Below, in pieces: positions 1-10,952 of a DNA stretch of 64,000 bases. Made by a program: the position numbers and the translations under genes. Under the pieces are notes generated by a model. The model saw only the letters and a list, made by a program, of their open reading frames with translations, was not told the origin of the DNA and did not search any database. Origin of the DNA: Erysipelotrichaceae bacterium (GTDB lineage: Bacteria > Bacillota_I > Bacilli_A > ML615J-28 > CAG-313); contig SVBG01000011.1 of the NCBI GenBank assembly GCA_015059015.1, positions 1 through 64,000 of the forward strand, read 5' to 3'. Position 1 is the first letter of the stretch. The number at the start of each line of letters is the position of its first letter.

Positions 1-314
1 TTTGTTTGTGTAATAATATAATCAGTGGATTCTATAATGGTTTTATTTACAGATGCTGTGTCTAAATATATTTTATTCCCCTCAAAATTTGTTATACCAC
101 TTTTTATAATTGAGTATCCTGGTAAAAATTCTATTTTGCATTTTTTTGTATTTATTGTATTTTTACGAAGAATTTCTTGTATTAATAGATTAATTTTTTC
201 ATTTTGTTTTAATAAATTTTCAATCAAATCATCAAGTGTTCCTATAGTGTTAATAATGTGGCATAATATATTATTCAAAATATGTTGAAAAATTGAAAAA
301 TTTATAAAAATATG
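1..314 (-). pseudogene. hsdS: Type I restriction specificity subunit (hsdS) fragment, continues past the left edge
   Basis: The minus strand is open from the stop at 317-315 to the window edge. Its translation starts with a helical stretch (TLDDLIENLLKQNEK, about 239-195) like the conserved spacer helix of HsdS. A target-recognition-domain start with the typical SIIKSGITNFEGNKIYLDT signature (about 114-60) follows. No first recognition domain precedes the helix. No ATG is in frame; the only candidate is an in-frame TTG at 278 without a Shine-Dalgarno. I infer a 5'-truncated half-gene, possibly a silent donor cassette facing hsdR. The main hsdM/hsdS would lie to the left, unseen. It could also be a decayed copy. 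The family call is fairly firm, the role is inference. Confidence 0.7.
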
Positions 315-321
315 TTATAAT
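293..321 (+). promoter_or_regulatory. Promoter of hsdR
   Basis: TTGAAA (293-298) and TATAAT (316-321) are separated by 17 bases, just upstream of hsdR. The promoter lies inside the non-homologous upstream end of the hsdS fragment, so hsdR can be transcribed independently of genes to the left. Confidence 0.6.
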
Positions 322-347
322 TTTAGAAAAGGAACATGGTGATTAGT

Positions 348-3300
348 ATGTTTTATGAAAGTGATGTAGAAAGAACTATAATAGAATTATTACAAGATAA
401 GGGTTATTCATATATAGATGATACTAACAATTGGGTTGTTGAAAGACAATTAAGTGATTTTATAAATGAAGAACTTTTATTACAACAACTAACTATAATA
501 AATAAAGGTGTAAAAAATAGAATATTAGAAGAAGCTATAAGAACTATAAAAAATATTGATCATCCATCTTTATTCGAACGAAATAAGATATTTCATCAAT
601 ATTTAGTAGACGGTTTAACTATTGAAGACTATGAAAGTGAAGTTAATCCTTTAATAAAATTAGTTGATTTTAATAATGTTGAAAATAATAAATTTGAAGT
701 TGGAAACCAAATTAAATTTAAAGAGTTTGCTAATAGAAGTACACGTATTCCAGATGTAATTATATTCATTAATGGTTTACCTTTAGTAGTGATGGAACTC
801 AAGTCGTTTGAAGGATTTGAAGATAAATTATTAGAAGATGCATATAATCAATTAGGTGGAAACACTGAAAGTAGCGGTTATAGATATGATATTCCAACGC
901 TATTTAATTACAATACTTTTAATGTAATCAGTGATGGAGCTAATTCAAAGGTTGGTGTATTGACTTCAAAATTAGATAGATATAATGAGTGGAAAAGTGT
1001 CAATGGTGAATTAGGCTATAAGGATAATTACACCTTTAAACTAGATGTTTTAGTAGATGGGCTATTTAAACCAGAAAGATTATTAGATGTAATTAAAAAT
1101 AATATTTTCTTTATCAATAAAGACAAAAGTAAAAATATTAAAATCATGACTCAATATCATCAATATTTTGGAGTTTGCAAATCTGTAGAAAGAGTAAAAC
1201 TTGCAATGAAGCCTAATGGTGATGGTAAAGCAGGACTACTTTGGCATACTCAAGGTAGTGGTAAAAGTTTTTCAATGGTAATGCTTGCTCATAGATTAAT
1301 TACTAATCAAGCATTGCAAAATCCTACCATTATTGTTTTAACTGATAGAAATGATTTAGATGAGCAATTATTTAATACATTTTCAAGTGCAAGTGAATAT
1401 TTAAGATGTACTCCAGTTCAAGTTAATTCAAGAAAAGATTTATTAGAAAAACTTAAAACAATAAGACAAGGTGGAGTAATATTCTCAACTATTCAAAAAT
1501 TTGATAAGGATGAAATAAAAGTAAATGAAAGAACTAATATTATTGTAATTGCCGATGAAGCTCATCGTGGACATTATGGCGTATATGAAAGAATTACTTA
1601 TCAAGAAAACGAAAATACAAATGAATTAGAATTAGTTTCTAAATATGGTACTGAAAAATATATTAGAGATTCTCTTCCAAATGCAACATTTATTGGCTTT
1701 ACTGGAACACCAGTAACCACGGCTGATAAATCGACAACTGACATTTATGGTGAAATTATAGATACATATGATATGACTCAAGCAGTTATTGATGGTGCTA
1801 CTGTAAGAATATTCTATGAAGGTAGACTTGCAAAAGTTTGGACAGATCAAAGTTTGTTAAGAAGAATTGATGATTATTATAACGATTTAGAAAATAAAGG
1901 TGTAAGTGAAACTATCATTGAAGAATCTAAAAAAAGAATGAGTAGTATTAAAGTTATTCTTGAAGACGATGATCTACTTAGTATGCTTGCTAAAGATATA
2001 GTTGATCATTACGAGCAAAGAAAAGGTTTTTTAAATGGTAAAGCAATGATAGTAATGCCAACAAGAATAGCTGCTGCAAAACTATATCATAAAATTATAA
2101 ATCTAAGACCATCTTATGAAGAAATAATGGTTGCAGTTGTAACTGAAAGTAATAAAGATAAACAAGAATTAAGAGATTTATTTGGAAGTAAAATAGATAG
2201 ACAAAAAGCTGCTAACGAATTTAAGTCAGAAAATAGTAAGATTAAAATTGCAATTGTTGTGGATATGTGGCTTACAGGATTTGATGTTCCAGATTTAGAC
2301 GTAATGTATATCTTTAAGAAAATGAAAGCTCATAACTTAATGCAGGCAATAGCTAGAGTCAATAGAGTTTATCCTGGAAAAGAATCGGGATTGGTTGTAG
2401 ATTATATCGGTCTTGCTAAAGCGTTGGAAGATGCATTGGACACATATACTGCTCGCGATAAAGAATTTAATTTAAAAGATATTCAAGATGTTGCATTAAC
2501 AATTTTAAAAGAAAAACTTTCAATTTTAAATGAATGGTTCTATAAAATTCCAATTGACAAATTTAACATAAAATCAGCTAAAGAAAGATTTAAAATAATC
2601 CAACAAGGCGCTGCTTTTGTTTTAGAAGATGATAAGCGTAAGAAAGAGTATTTAAAATTATCTATTGATTTAAAACATGCGTACACTGTTTCAGCTGGTA
2701 TATTAGATAAAGAACAACATTCAATTGTTCAGTATTATTTATCAGTAAGAAGTTATATTTTGAAATTAGAGATTGGCACTGGACCTATTGCTTTAGGAGA
2801 TATTAACGATGAAATTGAAAAATTAGTTGCTGATGCAATAAAGGGGGATGAAGTAAAAGTATTAACTCAAGTTGGAACTACTGATCAAGCTGCTCTAGTA
2901 GATTTATTGAGACCAGAGAAGATAGAAGAACTTAAAAAATCCAATCCTCCTCATATTTTCTTAAAGATTATTGAAAATTTATTAAAACAAGTTATTGCAG
3001 AAAGTAGAAAAACAAACCTTTATAAAGCACAACAATATAGTGAACGTTTAAGAAAGATTCTTGAAAAATACCATGATAGAAATGGTGATTTTGATACTAC
3101 AGATACAATTGTTAAGATTATAGATTTTGCTCAAGAAGTAGTATCAGATGAAGATGCTGCAAATGAATTGGGACTTTCAGGTAGAGAAAGAGCATTCTAT
3201 GATGCTTTAGCTGGCAATAAGAGTGCATATGAACTTTTAACAGATGAAACATTAAAGTGTATTGCTCATGAATTAAAAGAAGTAGTGGAAGAATATTCTA

Positions 3301-3443
3301 CAGTAGATTGGGCTAAGAAAAAAGCAACTCAAGCTAAAATGAGAAGAGAAATAAAACGTCTTTTGAAAAAATATAATTATCCGCCTGAATATACTGAAGA
3401 GGCAATAATAACAGTTATTAAACAAGCGGAATACATGATGTAG
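348..3443 (+). CDS. hsdR: Type I restriction enzyme R subunit (HsdR)
   Basis: This is the motor and nuclease subunit of a type I restriction-modification complex: it translocates DNA using ATP and cuts it. The 1031-1035 residue length is normal. Counting from the upstream ATG at 336, it has an N-terminal PD-(D/E)xK nuclease (PDVIIF about 140, MELKS about 153), Walker A in HTQGSGKSFSM (about 305-315), DEAH in VIADEAHRG (about 406), GFTGTP (about 455) and the helicase end motif ARVNRV (about 670). ATG 348 has a GGTGAT Shine-Dalgarno like several genes here; ATG 336, with AAAGGA close by, is also possible. The methyltransferase subunit is not in the window; the adjacent opposite-strand hsdS fragment supports a type I locus. 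Confidence 0.93.
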   Translation: MFYESDVERTIIELLQDKGYSYIDDTNNWVVERQLSDFINEELLLQQLTIINKGVKNRILEEAIRTIKNIDHPSLFERNKIFHQYLVDGLTIEDYESEVNPLIKLVDFNNVENNKFEVGNQIKFKEFANRSTRIPDVIIFINGLPLVVMELKSFEGFEDKLLEDAYNQLGGNTESSGYRYDIPTLFNYNTFNVISDGANSKVGVLTSKLDRYNEWKSVNGELGYKDNYTFKLDVLVDGLFKPERLLDVIKNNIFFINKDKSKNIKIMTQYHQYFGVCKSVERVKLAMKPNGDGKAGLLWHTQGSGKSFSMVMLAHRLITNQALQNPTIIVLTDRNDLDEQLFNTFSSASEYLRCTPVQVNSRKDLLEKLKTIRQGGVIFSTIQKFDKDEIKVNERTNIIVIADEAHRGHYGVYERITYQENENTNELELVSKYGTEKYIRDSLPNATFIGFTGTPVTTADKSTTDIYGEIIDTYDMTQAVIDGATVRIFYEGRLAKVWTDQSLLRRIDDYYNDLENKGVSETIIEESKKRMSSIKVILEDDDLLSMLAKDIVDHYEQRKGFLNGKAMIVMPTRIAAAKLYHKIINLRPSYEEIMVAVVTESNKDKQELRDLFGSKIDRQKAANEFKSENSKIKIAIVVDMWLTGFDVPDLDVMYIFKKMKAHNLMQAIARVNRVYPGKESGLVVDYIGLAKALEDALDTYTARDKEFNLKDIQDVALTILKEKLSILNEWFYKIPIDKFNIKSAKERFKIIQQGAAFVLEDDKRKKEYLKLSIDLKHAYTVSAGILDKEQHSIVQYYLSVRSYILKLEIGTGPIALGDINDEIEKLVADAIKGDEVKVLTQVGTTDQAALVDLLRPEKIEELKKSNPPHIFLKIIENLLKQVIAESRKTNLYKAQQYSERLRKILEKYHDRNGDFDTTDTIVKIIDFAQEVVSDEDAANELGLSGRERAFYDALAGNKSAYELLTDETLKCIAHELKEVVEEYSTVDWAKKKATQAKMRREIKRLLKKYNYPPEYTEEAIITVIKQAEYMM

Positions 3444-3452
3444 GTGAATTAA

Positions 3453-4412
3453 ATGAAAATAAAATTATCTAGAAAAGAATATTTAAAATTAAACCAGGTA
3501 TTTGGTAAGGAAACGCAATTTAGTGAATGGTTAGCACATGAGGGAATAGATTATTTAAAAGAAGCGCTAGGTGTTGAATTAGTTAGCGAAGGTACTGAAG
3601 TTAAACCTAATAATAAGTTTAGTGTTGATATCTTATTATCAGTTGAAAATCAAGATTCAAAAAAAGAAATGGAAAAAATAGTTGTTGAAAATCAATATGG
3701 TATGACTGATCATAATCATTTCAGTAAGCTTATTACATATGCTGTTACAAATGAAGCTAAATATGCTGTTTGGATTGCAGAAGAAATACATCCGGAACAT
3801 AAAAAAGCTATAGAATTTTTAAATGAAAATACAACTGACAATATAAATTTTTATTTATTAAAAGCGTTTGTTGAAAAAATAGATGACTCTAATCCTTGTT
3901 TTTCGCTAGAAATAATTTGTGAACCAAATGAAGAAAAGAAGATTATGATGTCTAGTGGTAGTAAAGAATTAACAGATTTGAAAAAAACTCAACTAAAATT
4001 TTGGGCATATCTCTCTGAAAAAATAAATTCTAGGAAGCTACCATTTAGAGGTAGAAAGCCTAGACCGAAACATTGGTATGATGTACCAGTGGGTTCTTCA
4101 CATTGCCATATCAGTATTTCTACATTATCAACTGAAAATAAAATAAGATTTGACTTGTGGATTAATAATAATAAAGCGTTATTTGATAAACTTTATTCAA
4201 TAAAAGAAGAAATCGAAAATGAAATTGGTAGAGAATTAGTTTGGGATCGCAAAGATGAATTAACTAAAGCAAGTTCAATAAGCTGTGAAGTTATAAATGA
4301 CTTTGACATATATAATGAAGATAAATATGGTGAATACTGTGAAAAAATTATAAACGATTTGATGAATCATTTTTATAAGTTTGAAAAAATATTAAAGAAT
4401 ATTAAATTATAG
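3453..4412 (+). CDS. DUF4268 family protein with a nuclease-like N-terminal half
   Basis: The 319-residue protein starts nine bases after hsdR and is surely co-transcribed with it. The first half has a PD-(D/E)xK-like layout: SVDILL (about 58-63) followed by IVVENQYGMTDHNHFSKL (about 76-93), where D and E-N-Q could be the metal-binding positions. The C-terminal half (about 175-310) resembles DUF4268, a domain often found beside restriction genes, including the RGRKPRPKHWYDVPVG stretch. I infer an accessory nuclease or DNA-binding role in the defence operon; the catalytic assignment is not certain. Confidence 0.65.
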   Translation: MKIKLSRKEYLKLNQVFGKETQFSEWLAHEGIDYLKEALGVELVSEGTEVKPNNKFSVDILLSVENQDSKKEMEKIVVENQYGMTDHNHFSKLITYAVTNEAKYAVWIAEEIHPEHKKAIEFLNENTTDNINFYLLKAFVEKIDDSNPCFSLEIICEPNEEKKIMMSSGSKELTDLKKTQLKFWAYLSEKINSRKLPFRGRKPRPKHWYDVPVGSSHCHISISTLSTENKIRFDLWINNNKALFDKLYSIKEEIENEIGRELVWDRKDELTKASSISCEVINDFDIYNEDKYGEYCEKIINDLMNHFYKFEKILKNIKL

Positions 4413-4440
4413 ATAATCTTCATCTAAAGGGGGTAGAACT

Positions 4441-5841
4441 ATGGATATAGTGTTATTAATATTACTAATTATAGTAGTAGTTTTATTAAGTGTTAATATC
4501 TTTATTAGTATTAAGAACAAACCAACTAATTCTTTAAATAATACAGATATTGACAACATTGAAAGAGTTGTTAAAACATGTATGAATCAAAATATTGATC
4601 GTATTAATGATAAGTTAGATACTCAAGTTAGATTATTAAAAGAAGCTAATTTTAGTTTATTTGATAAGTTAGAAGTTAAGTTTAATAATTTAGAAAATGA
4701 AATAGAGTCATTAAAGTTATCATTTAAAGATACAAATGAAATGATCAATGATAAACTTAAAGAAATGATTAAAGATAATTATGAATCTGTTAATCAAATA
4801 AAAGAAAAGTTATCTAATGAAATTAAAGAGTTTAATGCATCTGTTAAAGAAGTATTAAAAGAATTTAATGAATCAATTAATAAATCATTTGATAAGCTTG
4901 ATGGAAATGTAAAAGAAAATTTAAAAGTTATAAGAGAATCAAATGAATTAAAACTTGATGAAATCAATAAAACTGTTAATGAAAAACTAGAAAGTACACT
5001 TAATGAAAGATTAAAGCAATCATTTAATAGTGTTATTGAACAAATAGGTGGAGTTAATAAAGCTATTGGTGAAATTAAAGGTCTTGCAAGTGATGTAGGA
5101 AGTTTGAAGAGTGTCTTAACTAATGTTAAGAGAAAAGGTACAATGGGAGAAGTTATCTTATCTACGATTATTAAAGACATGCTTGCACCATCACAATATG
5201 AAGAAAATGTAGTAACTAAAAAAGGAAGTACAGAACGTGTTGAATTTGCAGTAAAACTTCCTAATCAAGATGATTCATATATATATCTTCCAATTGATTC
5301 TAAGTTACCTTTAGAAGCATATCACAGAATTCAAGATGCACAAAATAATAGTGATGTAGAAGCATTAAAAGTTGCAAGAGCTGAACTTAAAAATCAAATT
5401 AAAAAGTATGCGAGTGATATTAGTACAAAATATATAGATGTACCAAATACAACTGAATTTGCTATAATGTTCTTACCGGTTGAAGGACTTTATATGGAAG
5501 TATTAGAACTTGGATTATTTGAAGAATTAAAAGCAAAATATAATATCAATATCGCAGGTCCTACAACTTTTACTGCAATACTTAATGCTTTACAAATGGG
5601 ATTTAAGACACTTGCAATTCAAAAGAAATCATCAGATGTCTTTACTTTACTTGCTGCAGTTAAAACAGAATTTGAAAACTTTGCAGGTGTACTTGCTAAA
5701 GCACAAAAGAAAGTAAATGAAGCATCAGATGAACTAGATAAACTTGTTGGTGTAAGAACTAGAAAAATTCAAAAACAATTACAAAATATTGAAACTTTAG
5801 ATCAAGATTTAACAAATAAGATTTTAGAAATTGAAGATTAA
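4441..5841 (+). CDS. rmuC: DNA recombination protein RmuC
   Basis: This RmuC-family protein limits recombination between short inverted repeats; in the family this role depends on a predicted nuclease-like core. The 466 residues contain an N-terminal membrane anchor (about 2-24), a long charged coiled coil (about 35-230) and the RmuC core (about 230-440), including KGTMGEVIL, YLPIDSKLPLEAY and FAIMFLPVEGLY. The Shine-Dalgarno AAAGGGGG is about six bases before ATG 4441. It follows the restriction operon by 28 bases. A link to rearrangement of hsdS inverted copies is attractive but only inferred. Confidence 0.9.
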   Translation: MDIVLLILLIIVVVLLSVNIFISIKNKPTNSLNNTDIDNIERVVKTCMNQNIDRINDKLDTQVRLLKEANFSLFDKLEVKFNNLENEIESLKLSFKDTNEMINDKLKEMIKDNYESVNQIKEKLSNEIKEFNASVKEVLKEFNESINKSFDKLDGNVKENLKVIRESNELKLDEINKTVNEKLESTLNERLKQSFNSVIEQIGGVNKAIGEIKGLASDVGSLKSVLTNVKRKGTMGEVILSTIIKDMLAPSQYEENVVTKKGSTERVEFAVKLPNQDDSYIYLPIDSKLPLEAYHRIQDAQNNSDVEALKVARAELKNQIKKYASDISTKYIDVPNTTEFAIMFLPVEGLYMEVLELGLFEELKAKYNINIAGPTTFTAILNALQMGFKTLAIQKKSSDVFTLLAAVKTEFENFAGVLAKAQKKVNEASDELDKLVGVRTRKIQKQLQNIETLDQDLTNKILEIED

Positions 5842-5843
5842 AA

Positions 5844-5874
5844 TGGTCACGCATTGCGTGACCAATATTTTTTA
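5844..5874 (+). terminator. Terminator after rmuC, built on a GC-rich odd palindrome
   Basis: TGGTCACGCA and TGCGTGACCA (5844-5864) are perfect 10-base arms around a single T, followed by a T run. The 11-base core ACGCANTGCGT recurs in the next gene at 6260-6278. Confidence 0.7.
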
Positions 5875-5980
5875 AAATAAAAAAAGCAATTTTAACATTT
5901 TTTTTAATTATATATATGAAGACTGTATTATTTTAAAATGTAATATGGTTTTTTAATATTAATTATAAGAGGAGTTAAAT

Positions 5981-6991
5981 ATGGCTAATGAAATGTTAAA
6001 TTCAGAATTTTATTCTAATATAAAAGAAATATTAGAAACTGCTAGAAAAAAAGCATATGCTGCAATTAATTTTGCAATGGTTGAAGCATATTGGGAAATT
6101 GGGAAAAGAATTGTTGAAATGCAAGATGGAAACAAAAATGCTGAATATGGTAAAAAACTTATTAAAGAGATTTCTAAGAAATTAACCATTGATTATGGAA
6201 AAGGGTTTGATGAAACAAATTTACGAAAAATGAGACAATTTTATTTATGTTTTAAAAAACGAGACGCACTGCGTCTCGAATTATCATGGACACATTATCG
6301 ATTAATAATGAAAGTAGAAAATGAAAATGCTAGATTGTTTTATATGGAAGAAGCAATAAAGTCAAATTGGAGCACTAGACAGCTTGCAAGACAAATTAAT
6401 ACTTTTTCATACGAAAGGTTACTTGCAAGTAAAGGTAATTATGATGTTGTTGCAGATACTACTAAAAAAGAAACTACAATGAAACCAAAAGATGTCATAA
6501 AAGATCCTTATGTATTAGAATTTTTAGGAATAAATGATACATCCAATTTTTATGAATCTGATTTAGAACAAGGATTAATCAATAGGTTACAGAAATTTTT
6601 ATTAGAACTTGGAAGAGGTTTTTCTTTTATTGCAAGACAACAACATCTCAATATTGAAGGAAGACACTTTTATATAGATTTGGTATTTTATCATTACATT
6701 CTAAAATGTTTTGTATTACTCGACTTAAAAACAGGAGATTTAACACACCAAGATATAGGGCAAATGCAAATGTATGTAAATTATTATACAAAAGAAAAAA
6801 TGCTTGCTGGTGATAATCCGCCTATTGGAATAATATTATGTTCAGATAAAAGTGATGCACTTGTTAAATATACAATTCCAGAAGGTTATAATCAAATATT
6901 TACTTCAAAGTATATGCTATATATTCCAACTGAAGAAGAATTAAGAAAAGAAATATTATTAGAACGAGAATATTTAGAGAATAAAAATTAA
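5981..6991 (+). CDS. DUF1016/YhcG-family PD-(D/E)xK nuclease
   Basis: The 336 residues contain the DUF1016 N-terminal helical domain (about 10-165, with AYWEIGKRIVE and LSWTHYRLIMKVEN) and the YhcG-type nuclease domain (about 175-330). The putative active site is in FYIDLVFYHYILKCFVLLDLK (D near 232, D-x-K near 249). Such proteins accompany restriction and other accessory loci; their exact job is unsettled. The start ATG 5981 has a GAGGAG site. A perfect 9-base palindrome (6260-6278) lies inside the coding region, in the segment encoding RDALRLE. Promoter and terminators separate it from rmuC, so it is its own unit. Confidence 0.85.
   Translation: MANEMLNSEFYSNIKEILETARKKAYAAINFAMVEAYWEIGKRIVEMQDGNKNAEYGKKLIKEISKKLTIDYGKGFDETNLRKMRQFYLCFKKRDALRLELSWTHYRLIMKVENENARLFYMEEAIKSNWSTRQLARQINTFSYERLLASKGNYDVVADTTKKETTMKPKDVIKDPYVLEFLGINDTSNFYESDLEQGLINRLQKFLLELGRGFSFIARQQHLNIEGRHFYIDLVFYHYILKCFVLLDLKTGDLTHQDIGQMQMYVNYYTKEKMLAGDNPPIGIILCSDKSDALVKYTIPEGYNQIFTSKYMLYIPTEEELRKEILLEREYLENKN
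6260..6278. repeat. GC-rich palindrome inside the DUF1016 gene
   Basis: CGAGACGCA and TGCGTCTCG flank a single C. It is strikingly GC-rich for this window and shares the core ACGCANTGCGT with the rmuC terminator about 400 bases upstream. It stays in frame. Confidence 0.6.
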
Positions 6992-7355: not shown

Positions 7356-10300
7356 ATGAATAAAACAATAAAACTTATGGGACTTACGTTTATTCTTTTT
7401 ATAATAACATTATCTTTTTGTATTATAAATAAACAATATACGGAAAATAATGTTAAAGCAGCAAATGTAGATAATCCTACATTATCTATTTATAAAAAGA
7501 ATTTATCGTATTCTAGTGAATTATATATTATGTATGCGGTAGAATATGATGGGTTTGATCCAAATCTTTATCCTGTGAAGATGTTATTCTATGACTCATT
7601 ACAAGAAGGGTATACTAAAGAAAATGCAACATATGTTGTTAATCCATCAGGTTCTACAACTATTGCGGGTGTAAATTGTTTAATATATTATTCTAGAGGA
7701 CTTGCAGCTAAACAAATGACAGATGATATTTATGCAAGAGCATATGTAGAGATTGATGATAAAATAATTTATTCAGAAGTAGTTAAATATAGTGTATTAG
7801 AATACGTATATGAAGCAACAGGTAAAGTAAATGAAAATATTGAAAACTTGCTATTTGCGATGAAAGAATATGGTGCTAAAGCACAAATTAATTTTAATTA
7901 TAATTTAGATAGACTTGCAAATGCAACATATTATAATATTAATGTAATTAACGGAACATTATCTGATGGTTTTACACAAGGAAGATTCCAATTAGAAGAA
8001 GAGATTACTATCAAGGCAAATCCTAGTGAGGAAGGTATGAGATTTGTACATTGGATAGATAAAAATGAAAAAGTTGTAAGTGATTCCTCAACTATTCAAA
8101 TTCAAGTTAGTGGTGATAACACTTATGAAGCAGTTTATACTGATTCTGCATCACCTATTTTAACAATTGATCCATCCTTAGAAACAATAAAATTAAATTG
8201 GAATAAAGAAGTAACAAAAGAATTCTTATTGCAAGGTGTATCTTCAATTGATGATATAGATGGAGATATTACAGATGATGTTCAAATAACACATCAAATT
8301 AATAATCGAAAATATGGTACATATGTAGTAACATATACATCAACAGATTCCAGTGGAAATATTTCTACTGTACAAAGAAATGTAGAAGTTGTTTGGGATT
8401 ATGCAGTACAGTTTATTGGTCATCAAGGTTCATATTATGGTGCACCAAACTCTGAAGAAGCATTCTTATATGCTGCAGAGACTTTACAATATCAAGCTTT
8501 AGAAACTGACGTTAAACAAACTAAAGATGGTGTATTTGTATGTTGTCATGATGATACATTTGGAGGACTTACAATTGCAAATACAAACTGGGCTGATTTA
8601 AAAGATGTTGTAATATCATCAAGTAGAACTGCTGGTTACCCTAGTCAATATGGTGAAATGCCTGGTACTGGTAAATATACTGCTAAAATTTGTACACTTG
8701 AAAGATATTTAGAAATTTGTAAAGAATATGGTATTAAAGCTGTTGTAGAACTTAAAGGTTCTCCTGGTATTTCAAATAGTGATCAATCAGGAATGCCAGC
8801 TTTAATGGAATTAATTGAACAAGAAGATATGTTAGATCAAACAATTTTCTTAGCAAGTGCATATAACTGTTTAATCTGGGTAAAACAAAATGGTTATGAT
8901 TATATTCCTTGTCAATATTTAGTTGATTCATTTGCATCTGAAACAGTATTTAATAGATGTAAAACTTATGGACTTGACGTTAGTGGTTGTGTTACATATG
9001 GTAATGGTCAAACTGAAAATACTGCTGAATGGGTTGTAAAATACCAAGATGCAGGAATTAAAGTTTCAACATATACATTTACTCAATATAGCGATTACAG
9101 TGATGTTCAAAAATGGATTGATAATGGTGTGGATTTTGTTACAGTTGACTGGCATAGTATGCATAAATTAGAATTACCTGATAATAGTGATATTGTTTAT
9201 CATACTGTTAAATTCTATGACCAAGATAATAATTTATTAAAAGAAACAAAAGTAAAAGATGGTAAAGCTGCATCAGCTCCTACTGCTCCAACACTTGAAG
9301 GCTATGAATTTGTTGGATGGGATAAATCAATTACAAATGTAACAGAAGATTTAGAAGTTAAAGCAGTTTATGATTTGGTTGAATATAAAATTACTTATGA
9401 CTCTAATCTATATGTATTAACTAAAACAACATGGGAAACAAAAGATGAATTTGTAAATGATTTTTATAATGATTTATTTGATTGGATCGTACTTAATAAA
9501 GATAATTTGTCATGTGTTTTATATAATGATGGTGTTTATACAATCACGACTAATTCAACTGAATATGGTACTGCAACATTCACTAGTGCTCAAGATATTA
9601 AAGATATAAATGTTTATATATTTGAACGTACTTTTGCAACATTAATTTATAAACCAATTGAGGGTACTAACTCAGCTGATTACGTTCCTGAAGTTGATAA
9701 TAATTATTTCTTAAATTCAGAACCATATCGTACTAAATATATTGAATGTAATAAATATTTCTTAAATGCAATGCAAACTTCATACACAAGTTATAGTTAT
9801 ACATATAAGCAAGCATCTAACAACCGTGTTCAAATCTTCTTTAGATTCCATCAATGGTGTAATGGTTCAATAATTACTTGTTTTGATAAATATCCTAATA
9901 AGTATTTAATTAAATATCTTACAGGTGTTACTGCAACAATGCCAAGTGATCACTTAACTTATACAGTTGAAGATGAATTTGAATTATCAAATCCAACTGC
10001 TTCAATTGAATTCTTAGGTTGGTATTTAGATCACGATGCAACAAGTGCACAAGTATTAAAAATTGAAAAAGGTACAACTGGTGATATTATTCTTTATGCT
10101 AAATGGGAAGTAGTTGAAACTCCTGATGTATATTCTAATATTACATATGAATTAGATGGTGGTGTTAATCACTCAATGAACGATTCAACATATTTAGAAG
10201 GTGTGATTACTAAATTATATCCTGCAACTAAAGAAGGTTATAAATTCTTAGGTTGGTCAAAAGTAAAAGGTAGTAATTCATATATTACATCAATTAGTGA

Positions 10301-10952
10301 ATTAACAACAGGTGATATTACTCTTTATGCAAATTATGAATATGAAGTATATAAAGTTACTTATAATCTAAATGGTGGACAATGGGGTAATCAAGCAGAA
10401 TTTACTGGAAATGCTGCAACAACACTTTCAACAACAGGAAAAGGAAACTTCTGGACAACATATCAAACAACGATTTTCTTAGATAGTGTTAGTACATATC
10501 CTAAAGCTACATTCTCATTTAGAGTTGGTATAGCCTATGATGATGCAATGGAAATTTATGTTGTAACTGCAATTGCAGATTCTGGAAATGATTTTGATTC
10601 ATCAAATGCAGAATATGTTATTTCAATTTCAGGATCATATGAAAACTACTCATCTACTTCATCATTTAGATCAAATGTTAAAGTTGGTCAAGGTGTAAGA
10701 GTAACAGGAGACTTAACTAGTGGAGTTACAACTCTTGAGTTCTTTAATGAAGAAAATATTGACTATGAAGAAGTTGAAAACTATATTGAAGAATATACTA
10801 TTGCTGAATTACCAGCACTATTACCAGAACCTATTTGTGACGGTAAAACATTTAAAGGTTGGAGTGTGAATCAAGATTTATCAGTTGATGTTTTAACACA
10901 ATTACCAACTGGTTTATCAGGTGATATTATTTTATATGCAATCTTTGAATAA
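7356..10952 (+). CDS. Secreted glycerophosphodiester phosphodiesterase-like protein with InlB-type repeats
   Basis: The 1198-residue exported protein has an N-terminal hydrophobic signal (about 6-28, without a clear lipobox). An Ig-like/DUF5011-like module (about 270-345, GDITDDVQITHQINNRKYGT) is followed by a GDPD catalytic domain (about 350-610: FIGHQGSYYG, ALETDVKQTKDG, CCHDDTFGG, VVELKG, FVTVDWHSM). At least four Flg_new/InlB-B repeats follow (for example GYEFVGWDKS, FLGWYLDH, GYKFLGWSK, TFKGWSVN). GDPDs hydrolyse glycerophosphodiesters to glycerol phosphate and alcohol. No sortase motif is visible at the C-terminus. It stands alone between an inverted repeat and a strong terminator. Confidence 0.8.
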   Translation: MNKTIKLMGLTFILFIITLSFCIINKQYTENNVKAANVDNPTLSIYKKNLSYSSELYIMYAVEYDGFDPNLYPVKMLFYDSLQEGYTKENATYVVNPSGSTTIAGVNCLIYYSRGLAAKQMTDDIYARAYVEIDDKIIYSEVVKYSVLEYVYEATGKVNENIENLLFAMKEYGAKAQINFNYNLDRLANATYYNINVINGTLSDGFTQGRFQLEEEITIKANPSEEGMRFVHWIDKNEKVVSDSSTIQIQVSGDNTYEAVYTDSASPILTIDPSLETIKLNWNKEVTKEFLLQGVSSIDDIDGDITDDVQITHQINNRKYGTYVVTYTSTDSSGNISTVQRNVEVVWDYAVQFIGHQGSYYGAPNSEEAFLYAAETLQYQALETDVKQTKDGVFVCCHDDTFGGLTIANTNWADLKDVVISSSRTAGYPSQYGEMPGTGKYTAKICTLERYLEICKEYGIKAVVELKGSPGISNSDQSGMPALMELIEQEDMLDQTIFLASAYNCLIWVKQNGYDYIPCQYLVDSFASETVFNRCKTYGLDVSGCVTYGNGQTENTAEWVVKYQDAGIKVSTYTFTQYSDYSDVQKWIDNGVDFVTVDWHSMHKLELPDNSDIVYHTVKFYDQDNNLLKETKVKDGKAASAPTAPTLEGYEFVGWDKSITNVTEDLEVKAVYDLVEYKITYDSNLYVLTKTTWETKDEFVNDFYNDLFDWIVLNKDNLSCVLYNDGVYTITTNSTEYGTATFTSAQDIKDINVYIFERTFATLIYKPIEGTNSADYVPEVDNNYFLNSEPYRTKYIECNKYFLNAMQTSYTSYSYTYKQASNNRVQIFFRFHQWCNGSIITCFDKYPNKYLIKYLTGVTATMPSDHLTYTVEDEFELSNPTASIEFLGWYLDHDATSAQVLKIEKGTTGDIILYAKWEVVETPDVYSNITYELDGGVNHSMNDSTYLEGVITKLYPATKEGYKFLGWSKVKGSNSYITSISELTTGDITLYANYEYEVYKVTYNLNGGQWGNQAEFTGNAATTLSTTGKGNFWTTYQTTIFLDSVSTYPKATFSFRVGIAYDDAMEIYVVTAIADSGNDFDSSNAEYVISISGSYENYSSTSSFRSNVKVGQGVRVTGDLTSGVTTLEFFNEENIDYEEVENYIEEYTIAELPALLPEPICDGKTFKGWSVNQDLSVDVLTQLPTGLSGDIILYAIFE

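What the first reader, a model, noticed from the sequence alone, without database searches (positions are those of the whole stretch)
1..314. Inverted, 5'-truncated hsdS half-gene beside hsdR
The minus strand carries the conserved HsdS spacer helix followed directly by a recognition-domain start, with no first domain, no good start codon and orientation opposite to hsdR. That is the form of silent cassettes used in phase-variable type I systems, where inversion swaps target specificity. rmuC and a DUF1016 nuclease follow hsdR.
Basis: partly seen in the sequence, partly recalled or inferred. Interest (0 to 1): 0.55.

Follow-up and report, generated by a model that had tools for sequence, protein, structure and literature searches.

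The report
Silent half-gene of switchable restriction system
The window starts inside a spare, unexpressed half of a DNA-recognition gene that relatives appear to flip into and out of use to change which DNA sequence their restriction enzyme marks and cuts; it is a well-supported but fragmentary example, from uncultured bacteria, of a known kind of genetic switch.

Summary
Minus strand 278-1 encodes an HsdS central spacer followed by a second recognition domain (TRD2), head-to-head with hsdR (336-3443). Window base 1 is the end of its contig, so hsdM, the expressed hsdS and any recombinase lie beyond the assembly; none was found elsewhere in the own genome. Related loci carry hsdM, reversed 5' half-genes (TRD1), one full hsdS, an intact Xer-like tyrosine recombinase, silent 3' half-genes (TRD2) and hsdR. 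The window piece is a 3' half next to hsdR; its closest match (about 60% identity) is the TRD2 of a full hsdS beside hsdM in G343. All halves meet at one short site in the I-V-N/D-T-I-G codons (ATAG-TTAACA-CTATAGG). The block TRD2-recombinase-TRD2 is exactly reversed between two relatives, and in a genome with a 90% identical HsdR two contigs both stop at the last base of the 6-bp core. [quoted passage not shown] cassette stores on both sides of hsdS with one short site may be a variant. Inversion in the window's own genome is not shown.

The parts
1..278 (-). Silent 3' half-hsdS: central spacer and start of TRD2, cut at base 1 by the contig end
   Evidence: Open frame; 60-61% identity to TRD2 of the G343 HsdS, 43-44% to a G305 half-gene
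239..260 (-). Inferred recombination site: left arm 260-254 (degenerate), 6-bp core TTAACA 253-248, right arm CTATAGGAA 247-239
   Evidence: site pattern in 3 of 43 genomes of the order, all beside this hsdR type; codon constraint
293..321 (+). Promoter-like sequence of hsdR (TTGAAA, 17 nt, TATAAT, TG before the second hexamer)
   Evidence: 11 of 12 consensus matches; number of hits in the region not above shuffles
336..3443 (+). hsdR, type I restriction subunit, intact, 1035 aa
   Evidence: TIGR00348 E 4e-160, HSDR_N and T1RH-like_C, PADLOC REase_I

Best explanation
[quoted passage not shown] A locus-encoded Xer-like tyrosine recombinase is inferred to exchange strands at a 6-bp core (TTAACA) between short inverted arms, embedded in the I-V-N-T-I-G codons where TRD1 meets the central helix. 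Inversion between the site in the expressed hsdS and an oppositely oriented site in a silent half swaps that half-gene and flips what lies between. Silent 5' halves (TRD1), reversed between hsdM and hsdS, serve one side; silent 3' halves (TRD2), between hsdS and hsdR, serve the other, so the two halves of the target sequence can change independently. hsdR probably has its own promoter outside the exchange. Shown here: the anatomy in relatives, the site, and rearranged orders between loci. Inferred: that this enzyme acts on this site, inversion in living populations, and that the window's genome has the rest of the locus in its assembly gap.
For: Fragment homologous to TRD2 of a complete HsdS and to silent 3' halves. 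Of 10 other genomes (395 searched) that match the fragment, 7 carry the G023-type recombinase, itself in 21 of 395, 484-581 bp from the match. Complete unbroken locus in G305 with a half-gene head-to-head with hsdR. Same core in all scored copies of a locus, TTAACA or TTGACA. Asn codon of the site AAC in 16 of 16 distinct strings against 2 of 11 at a control Asn. Block TRD2-recombinase-TRD2 reversed between G240 and G023; same TRD types silent in one genome and expressed in another. Two G011 contigs both end at the last base of the core; two G010 contigs end 15 and 22 bp past it. Recombinase keeps R, K, HxxR, H, Y.
Against: No recombinase, hsdM, full hsdS or second site in the own assembly, nor a recombinase of this type in G010 or G011 of the same family. 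No reads were seen, so inversion is not observed anywhere. Three of the 10 fragment matches lack the recombinase. Some 3' halves lie in the same direction as hsdS (G023 14057-, G363 8319+). The window contig ends 247 bp past the core, not at it.
Confidence: 0.85

Rival explanations
1. A dead remnant: an old inversion or deletion left half an hsdS next to hsdR, and the genome has no working hsdM, hsdS or recombinase.
For: None of the other parts is in a 98% complete assembly.
Against: The gap coincides with a contig end, as at the same place in G011, G010 and G047; hsdR is intact; the half-gene has no stop up to the contig end and a complete right arm and core.
Confidence: 0.1
2. An ordinary, non-switching second hsdS or a complete single hsdS in the opposite direction, cut by the contig end.
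For: The left side is unseen; type I loci can be divergent (recalled).
Against: There is no TRD1: only 21 codons are open before the core, and the 58 bases between the frame and hsdR hold the hsdR promoter-like sequence. Relatives have half-genes in this place.
Confidence: 0.03
3. A chimeric contig: the half-hsdS was joined to hsdR by the assembler.
For: It lies at a contig end of a draft assembly in 14 contigs.
Against: The same head-to-head pair occurs in G305, G240 and G363 on contigs that run through it, and G010 shows the same site beside hsdR.
Confidence: 0.02

Closest known systems
Streptococcus pneumoniae SpnD39III / cod (Spn556II) locus with the tyrosine recombinase PsrA/CreX (passages: PMC4190663; PMC4948785; PMC7096588)
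   Same: hsdR, hsdM, one expressed hsdS, truncated hsdS genes without 5' end, ribosome-binding site or promoter, a tyrosine recombinase gene in the locus, inverted repeats
   Different: There the truncated genes lie downstream of hsdS and the repeats are 15, 85 and 333 bp; here half-genes lie on both sides of hsdS and share one short site with a 6-bp core; hsdR is at the far end with its own promoter-like sequence
Mycoplasma hominis hsd2 locus with psrA between hsdS genes (passages of PMC11096450) and M. pulmonis hsd with HvsR (as cited)
   Same: Low-GC relatives in the wide sense; several hsdS and a tyrosine-type invertase between them
   Different: Described there as several hsdS genes forming inverted repeats, not as separate stores of 5' and 3' halves; sites and recombinases were not compared here
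Inverting type I systems of the REBASE survey, with silent hsdS' (PMC7394358; abstract, one results section and passages)
   Same: Only the hsdS after hsdM is functional; the opposite one lacks a start codon and promoter
   Different: That survey required 100% identical inverted repeats of at least 20 bp; the shared core and arms here are shorter and imperfect in most pairs
Bacteroides fragilis type I hsdS shufflon (recalled; only mentioned)
   Same: Recalled: partial hsdS genes shuffled by site-specific inversion
   Different: Different phylum; sites and recombinase not compared here

Membership tests
Phase-variable (inverting) type I restriction-modification system | Type I hsdR with hsdM and a full hsdS in the locus | tested here: inconclusive
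   hsdR met in the window; hsdM and full hsdS absent from the own assembly, present in relatives' loci
Phase-variable (inverting) type I restriction-modification system | Extra, incomplete hsdS lacking start and promoter, in inverted orientation | tested here: met
   Window 278-1: no TRD1, TTG only, opposite to hsdR, no promoter hit above chance
Phase-variable (inverting) type I restriction-modification system | Inverted repeats shared between silent and expressed hsdS | tested here: inconclusive
   Met in G023, G240, G163, G305, G333, G363; in the own genome only one copy is assembled
Phase-variable (inverting) type I restriction-modification system | Recombinase encoded in the locus | tested here: inconclusive
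   Met in relatives; not in the own assembly
Phase-variable (inverting) type I restriction-modification system | Observed inversion and change of methylation motif | not testable with these tools
   No reads or methylation data; indirect signs
Tyrosine recombinase (for the relatives' enzyme) | Phage_integrase domain with R, K, HxxR, H/W, Y (pattern recalled) | tested here: met
   PF00589 E 3.5e-24 for G023; positions kept in five relatives' proteins aligned with two Xer-type proteins of the own genome
XerC, XerD or XerA equivalog (for the relatives' enzyme) | Score above the NCBIfam cut-off | tested here: not met
   Best 124.4 bits against a cut-off of 220

The most novel reading that the evidence does not exclude
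A distinct class of hsdS shufflon in uncultured Bacilli: one Xer-dif-like site with a 6-bp core, written in the codons where TRD1 meets the spacer, serves two separate cassette stores (5' halves from the hsdM stop onwards, 3' halves up to hsdR), so each half of the target changes independently. With four TRD1 in G011 and four TRD2 in G023, a locus holding both would give 16 specificities, in a form that a filter for 20-bp identical repeats can miss and that draft assemblies tend to break.
Probability: 0.35. Interest if true: 0.55.

Novelty: new member of a known kind. Interest (0 to 1): 0.4.

Why it matters
If right, these uncultured Bacilli can change the target of their restriction and methylation by recombination, with consequences for phage defence and possibly for gene regulation. 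The locus also shows that contig ends in draft genomes can mark active switches, and that surveys which require long identical inverted repeats may under-count such systems.

Tried and rejected
Family libraries on the 92-aa piece gave nothing usable (Pfam and PADLOC none, one chance NCBIfam hit), nor did the PDB by sequence (for the G343 HsdS), plasmids by tblastn or viral contigs by site pattern. The HsdR scan of genome contigs returned 4 loci, one of them equal in length and match to the G011 contig (a goat-colon Bacilli record), the others 39-41% identical; those others were not examined further.

The own tyrosine recombinases were considered as the missing invertase and rejected: two look like XerC/D, the third is a 278-aa protein with about 25% local identity to the G023 recombinase. 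N6_Mtase hits of the own genome were rejected as HsdM: one is a 993-aa fused-type methylase, two are small methyltransferases; these labels are my reading, and the HsdM search found no match in the own genome.

Rows dropped: one search lists 35 site-like rows. I treat two as chance (G011b 4084+, antisense; G363 9789+, inside the recombinase), leaving 22 with the right arm (7 in expressed hsdS, 15 in 3' halves, by position), 10 silent 5' ends and one 5' end at a contig end (G011 4639+). One search counts codons on sites found by a DNA pattern that itself favours AAC, so I use the count (protein motif; 20 distinct strings, one dropped as not a site). Of the 12 loci fetched, L100-L105 have the recombinase but no site within one mismatch and were not analysed further. 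Structure prediction was not run: the fragment is short, and loci from the genome search are not on that tool's list.

Full report
What is there. Window base 1 is therefore the end of a contig. From 278 down to the edge the minus strand is open for 92 codons with a TTG start. The peptide begins with an HsdS-type central spacer (NTIGTLDDLIEN) and runs into a recognition-domain start. hsdR (336-3443, plus) is divergent from it and intact. A promoter-like sequence with 11 of 12 consensus matches lies between them at 293-321 and points to hsdR; two minus-strand candidates there reach 9 of 12, and the number of hits is no more than shuffles give.

Identity of the fragment. No family model recognises the short piece. 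Its relatives identify it: about 60% identity over 81-84 residues to the second half of a complete HsdS in G343, 43-44% to a half-gene in G305, and 59/42/42/41% to four 3' halves that share a pattern like KIIKSGI..F...KIYLDTASV. HsdS and half-HsdS proteins of related loci match PF01420 above its cut-off, for example the G305 HsdS, a G023 half and four G011 halves. The G343 HsdS itself scores 20.3 bits, just under the cut-off of 22, but sits beside an hsdM, with one reversed half-gene between them.

Own genome. It has no Methylase_S match, no HsdM like that of the relatives, one copy of the full site pattern, at 226-252, and three tyrosine recombinases, none like the one in related loci. The rest of the locus is either in the assembly gap or absent.

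Related loci. Of 60 genomes, the own one included, 20 have an HsdR match; besides the own, four are at least 60% identical over nearly the full length (G011 90%, G010 61%, G023 61%, G047 60%). In three of these four the contig ends within about 140 bp upstream of hsdR (G011, G010, G047), and G023's contig ends inside hsdS. In a draw of 395 genomes of the class, 11 match the fragment, the own one included; of the other 10, seven (G023, G163, G240, G305, G333, G343, G363) carry a G023-type recombinase, found in 21 of 395, and in each the two matches are 484-581 bp apart. G121, G172 and G203 match the fragment without that recombinase.

Anatomy. G305 has the locus unbroken on an 847-kb contig: hsdM, a reversed 5' half ending in ...LQQHIVDTI, a full hsdS, the recombinase, a reversed 3' half and hsdR. 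G343, G240 and G163 show parts of the same order. In G011, hsdM is followed by three reversed TRD1 halves and one forward TRD1 half that runs into the contig end; all four match PF01420. G023 has an expressed hsdS cut by the contig end in TRD1, and three further 3' halves. G333 and G363 appear to read TGA as Trp in these genes (one search counts only TGA stops inside their best hsdM) and have similar parts; in G333 the hsdM-hsdS part lies the other way round.

The site. The junctions share a 6-bp core, TTAACA, or TTGACA in G305 and G343, with left arm CACATAG and right arm CTATAGGAA or close variants. Expressed genes have both arms; 5' halves keep the left arm and 3' halves the right arm. ATAG and CTAT are inverted arms around the core, as expected for a tyrosine recombinase (inference). 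The core is the same in all accepted copies of a locus, even where it changes the residue from N to D. In a search by protein motif only, the Asn codon of the site is AAC in 16 of 16 distinct strings, against 2 of 11 for the Asn eleven residues on (1.2e-5 if independent, which they are not fully). AAC is 13.6% of Asn codons in 29 long ORFs of the window. The window site reads CACATTA-TTAACA-CTATAGGAA.

Signs of inversion. Orthologous TRD2 types can be named by the pairs (A: G023 11338 and G240 8362, 58%; B: G023 11938 and G240 11078, 58%; C: G023 14057 and G240 8956, 64%). From hsdR, G240 reads A+, C+, recombinase+, B- (expressed), and G023 reads A+, B+, recombinase-, C-, then its expressed TRD2. 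The block C+ rec+ B- is exactly reversed. Type C is silent in G305, G240 and G163 and expressed in G343; the window fragment belongs to it. TRD1 types also change between silent and expressed positions (G240 silent and G305 expressed, 59%; G163 silent and G343 expressed, 47%). In G011 the hsdM-side contig ends ...CACATAGTTAACA and the hsdR-side contig, read towards hsdS, ends ...TTTATTAACA: both stop at the last base of the core. In G010 the two contigs stop 15 and 22 bp past the core. That is what an assembler does when several sequences follow a shared one, so mixed arrangements in the sampled population are a natural reading, though not a proof. The window contig itself stops 247 bp past its core.

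Mechanism. The relatives' recombinases keep the R, K, HxxR, H and Y positions (pattern recalled) and are Xer-like without reaching any Xer equivalog cut-off. I infer that the enzyme recombines inverted cores; that inversion to the hsdM side replaces TRD1 and inversion to the hsdR side replaces TRD2; and that silent halves lack a start and promoter. Some 3' halves lie in the direction of hsdS (G023 14057-, G363 8319+), where recombination with the expressed site would delete rather than invert unless the block is first flipped; this is not resolved.

Comparison with what is known. Inverting type I systems with truncated silent hsdS genes and a tyrosine recombinase are described in pneumococcus (PMC4190663, PMC4948785, PMC7096588; passages), in Mycoplasma hominis (PMC11096450, passages) and across REBASE (PMC7394358; abstract, one results section and passages). 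A M. faucium locus with 5'-truncated hsdS pseudogenes uses direct repeats (PMC11062135, passages). The two-sided array with one short core was not among the passages I read. My paper searches do not allow a claim that it is unpublished, and I recall something similar for Bacteroides fragilis. I file it as a new member of a known kind.

Noticed in passing
window 3453-6991: After hsdR come a DUF4268 gene (PADLOC candidate PDC-S11), rmuC and a DUF1016/YhcG nuclease (PDC-S02): a likely defence island.
   Followed up: partly
window 7356-10952: A 1198-aa ORF with a signal-like start and similar repeat-like segments, probably a surface protein; seen in the ORF list only.
   Followed up: no
L034 10030-11211 (G023); L139 2929-5541 (G010); L006 3-278 (G047): AAA_14/DUF4143-type ATPase genes lie close to this restriction locus in three relatives; in G023 one sits between the silent halves and hsdR (Pfam tested for G023 only).
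   Followed up: no
L094 (G333): hsdM and hsdS lie the other way round relative to hsdR and recombinase than in G363, as if a larger piece between sites had turned over.
   Followed up: partly
L138 2749 (G011) and L139 7285 (G010): The site of a reversed 5' half lies at the hsdM stop codon, so recombination there would leave hsdM's end almost at the breakpoint.
   Followed up: no
L100-L105: Six loci with a 55-64% identical recombinase lack this site within one mismatch; several have hsdM or further genes of the kind nearby, so other sites may be in use.
   Followed up: no
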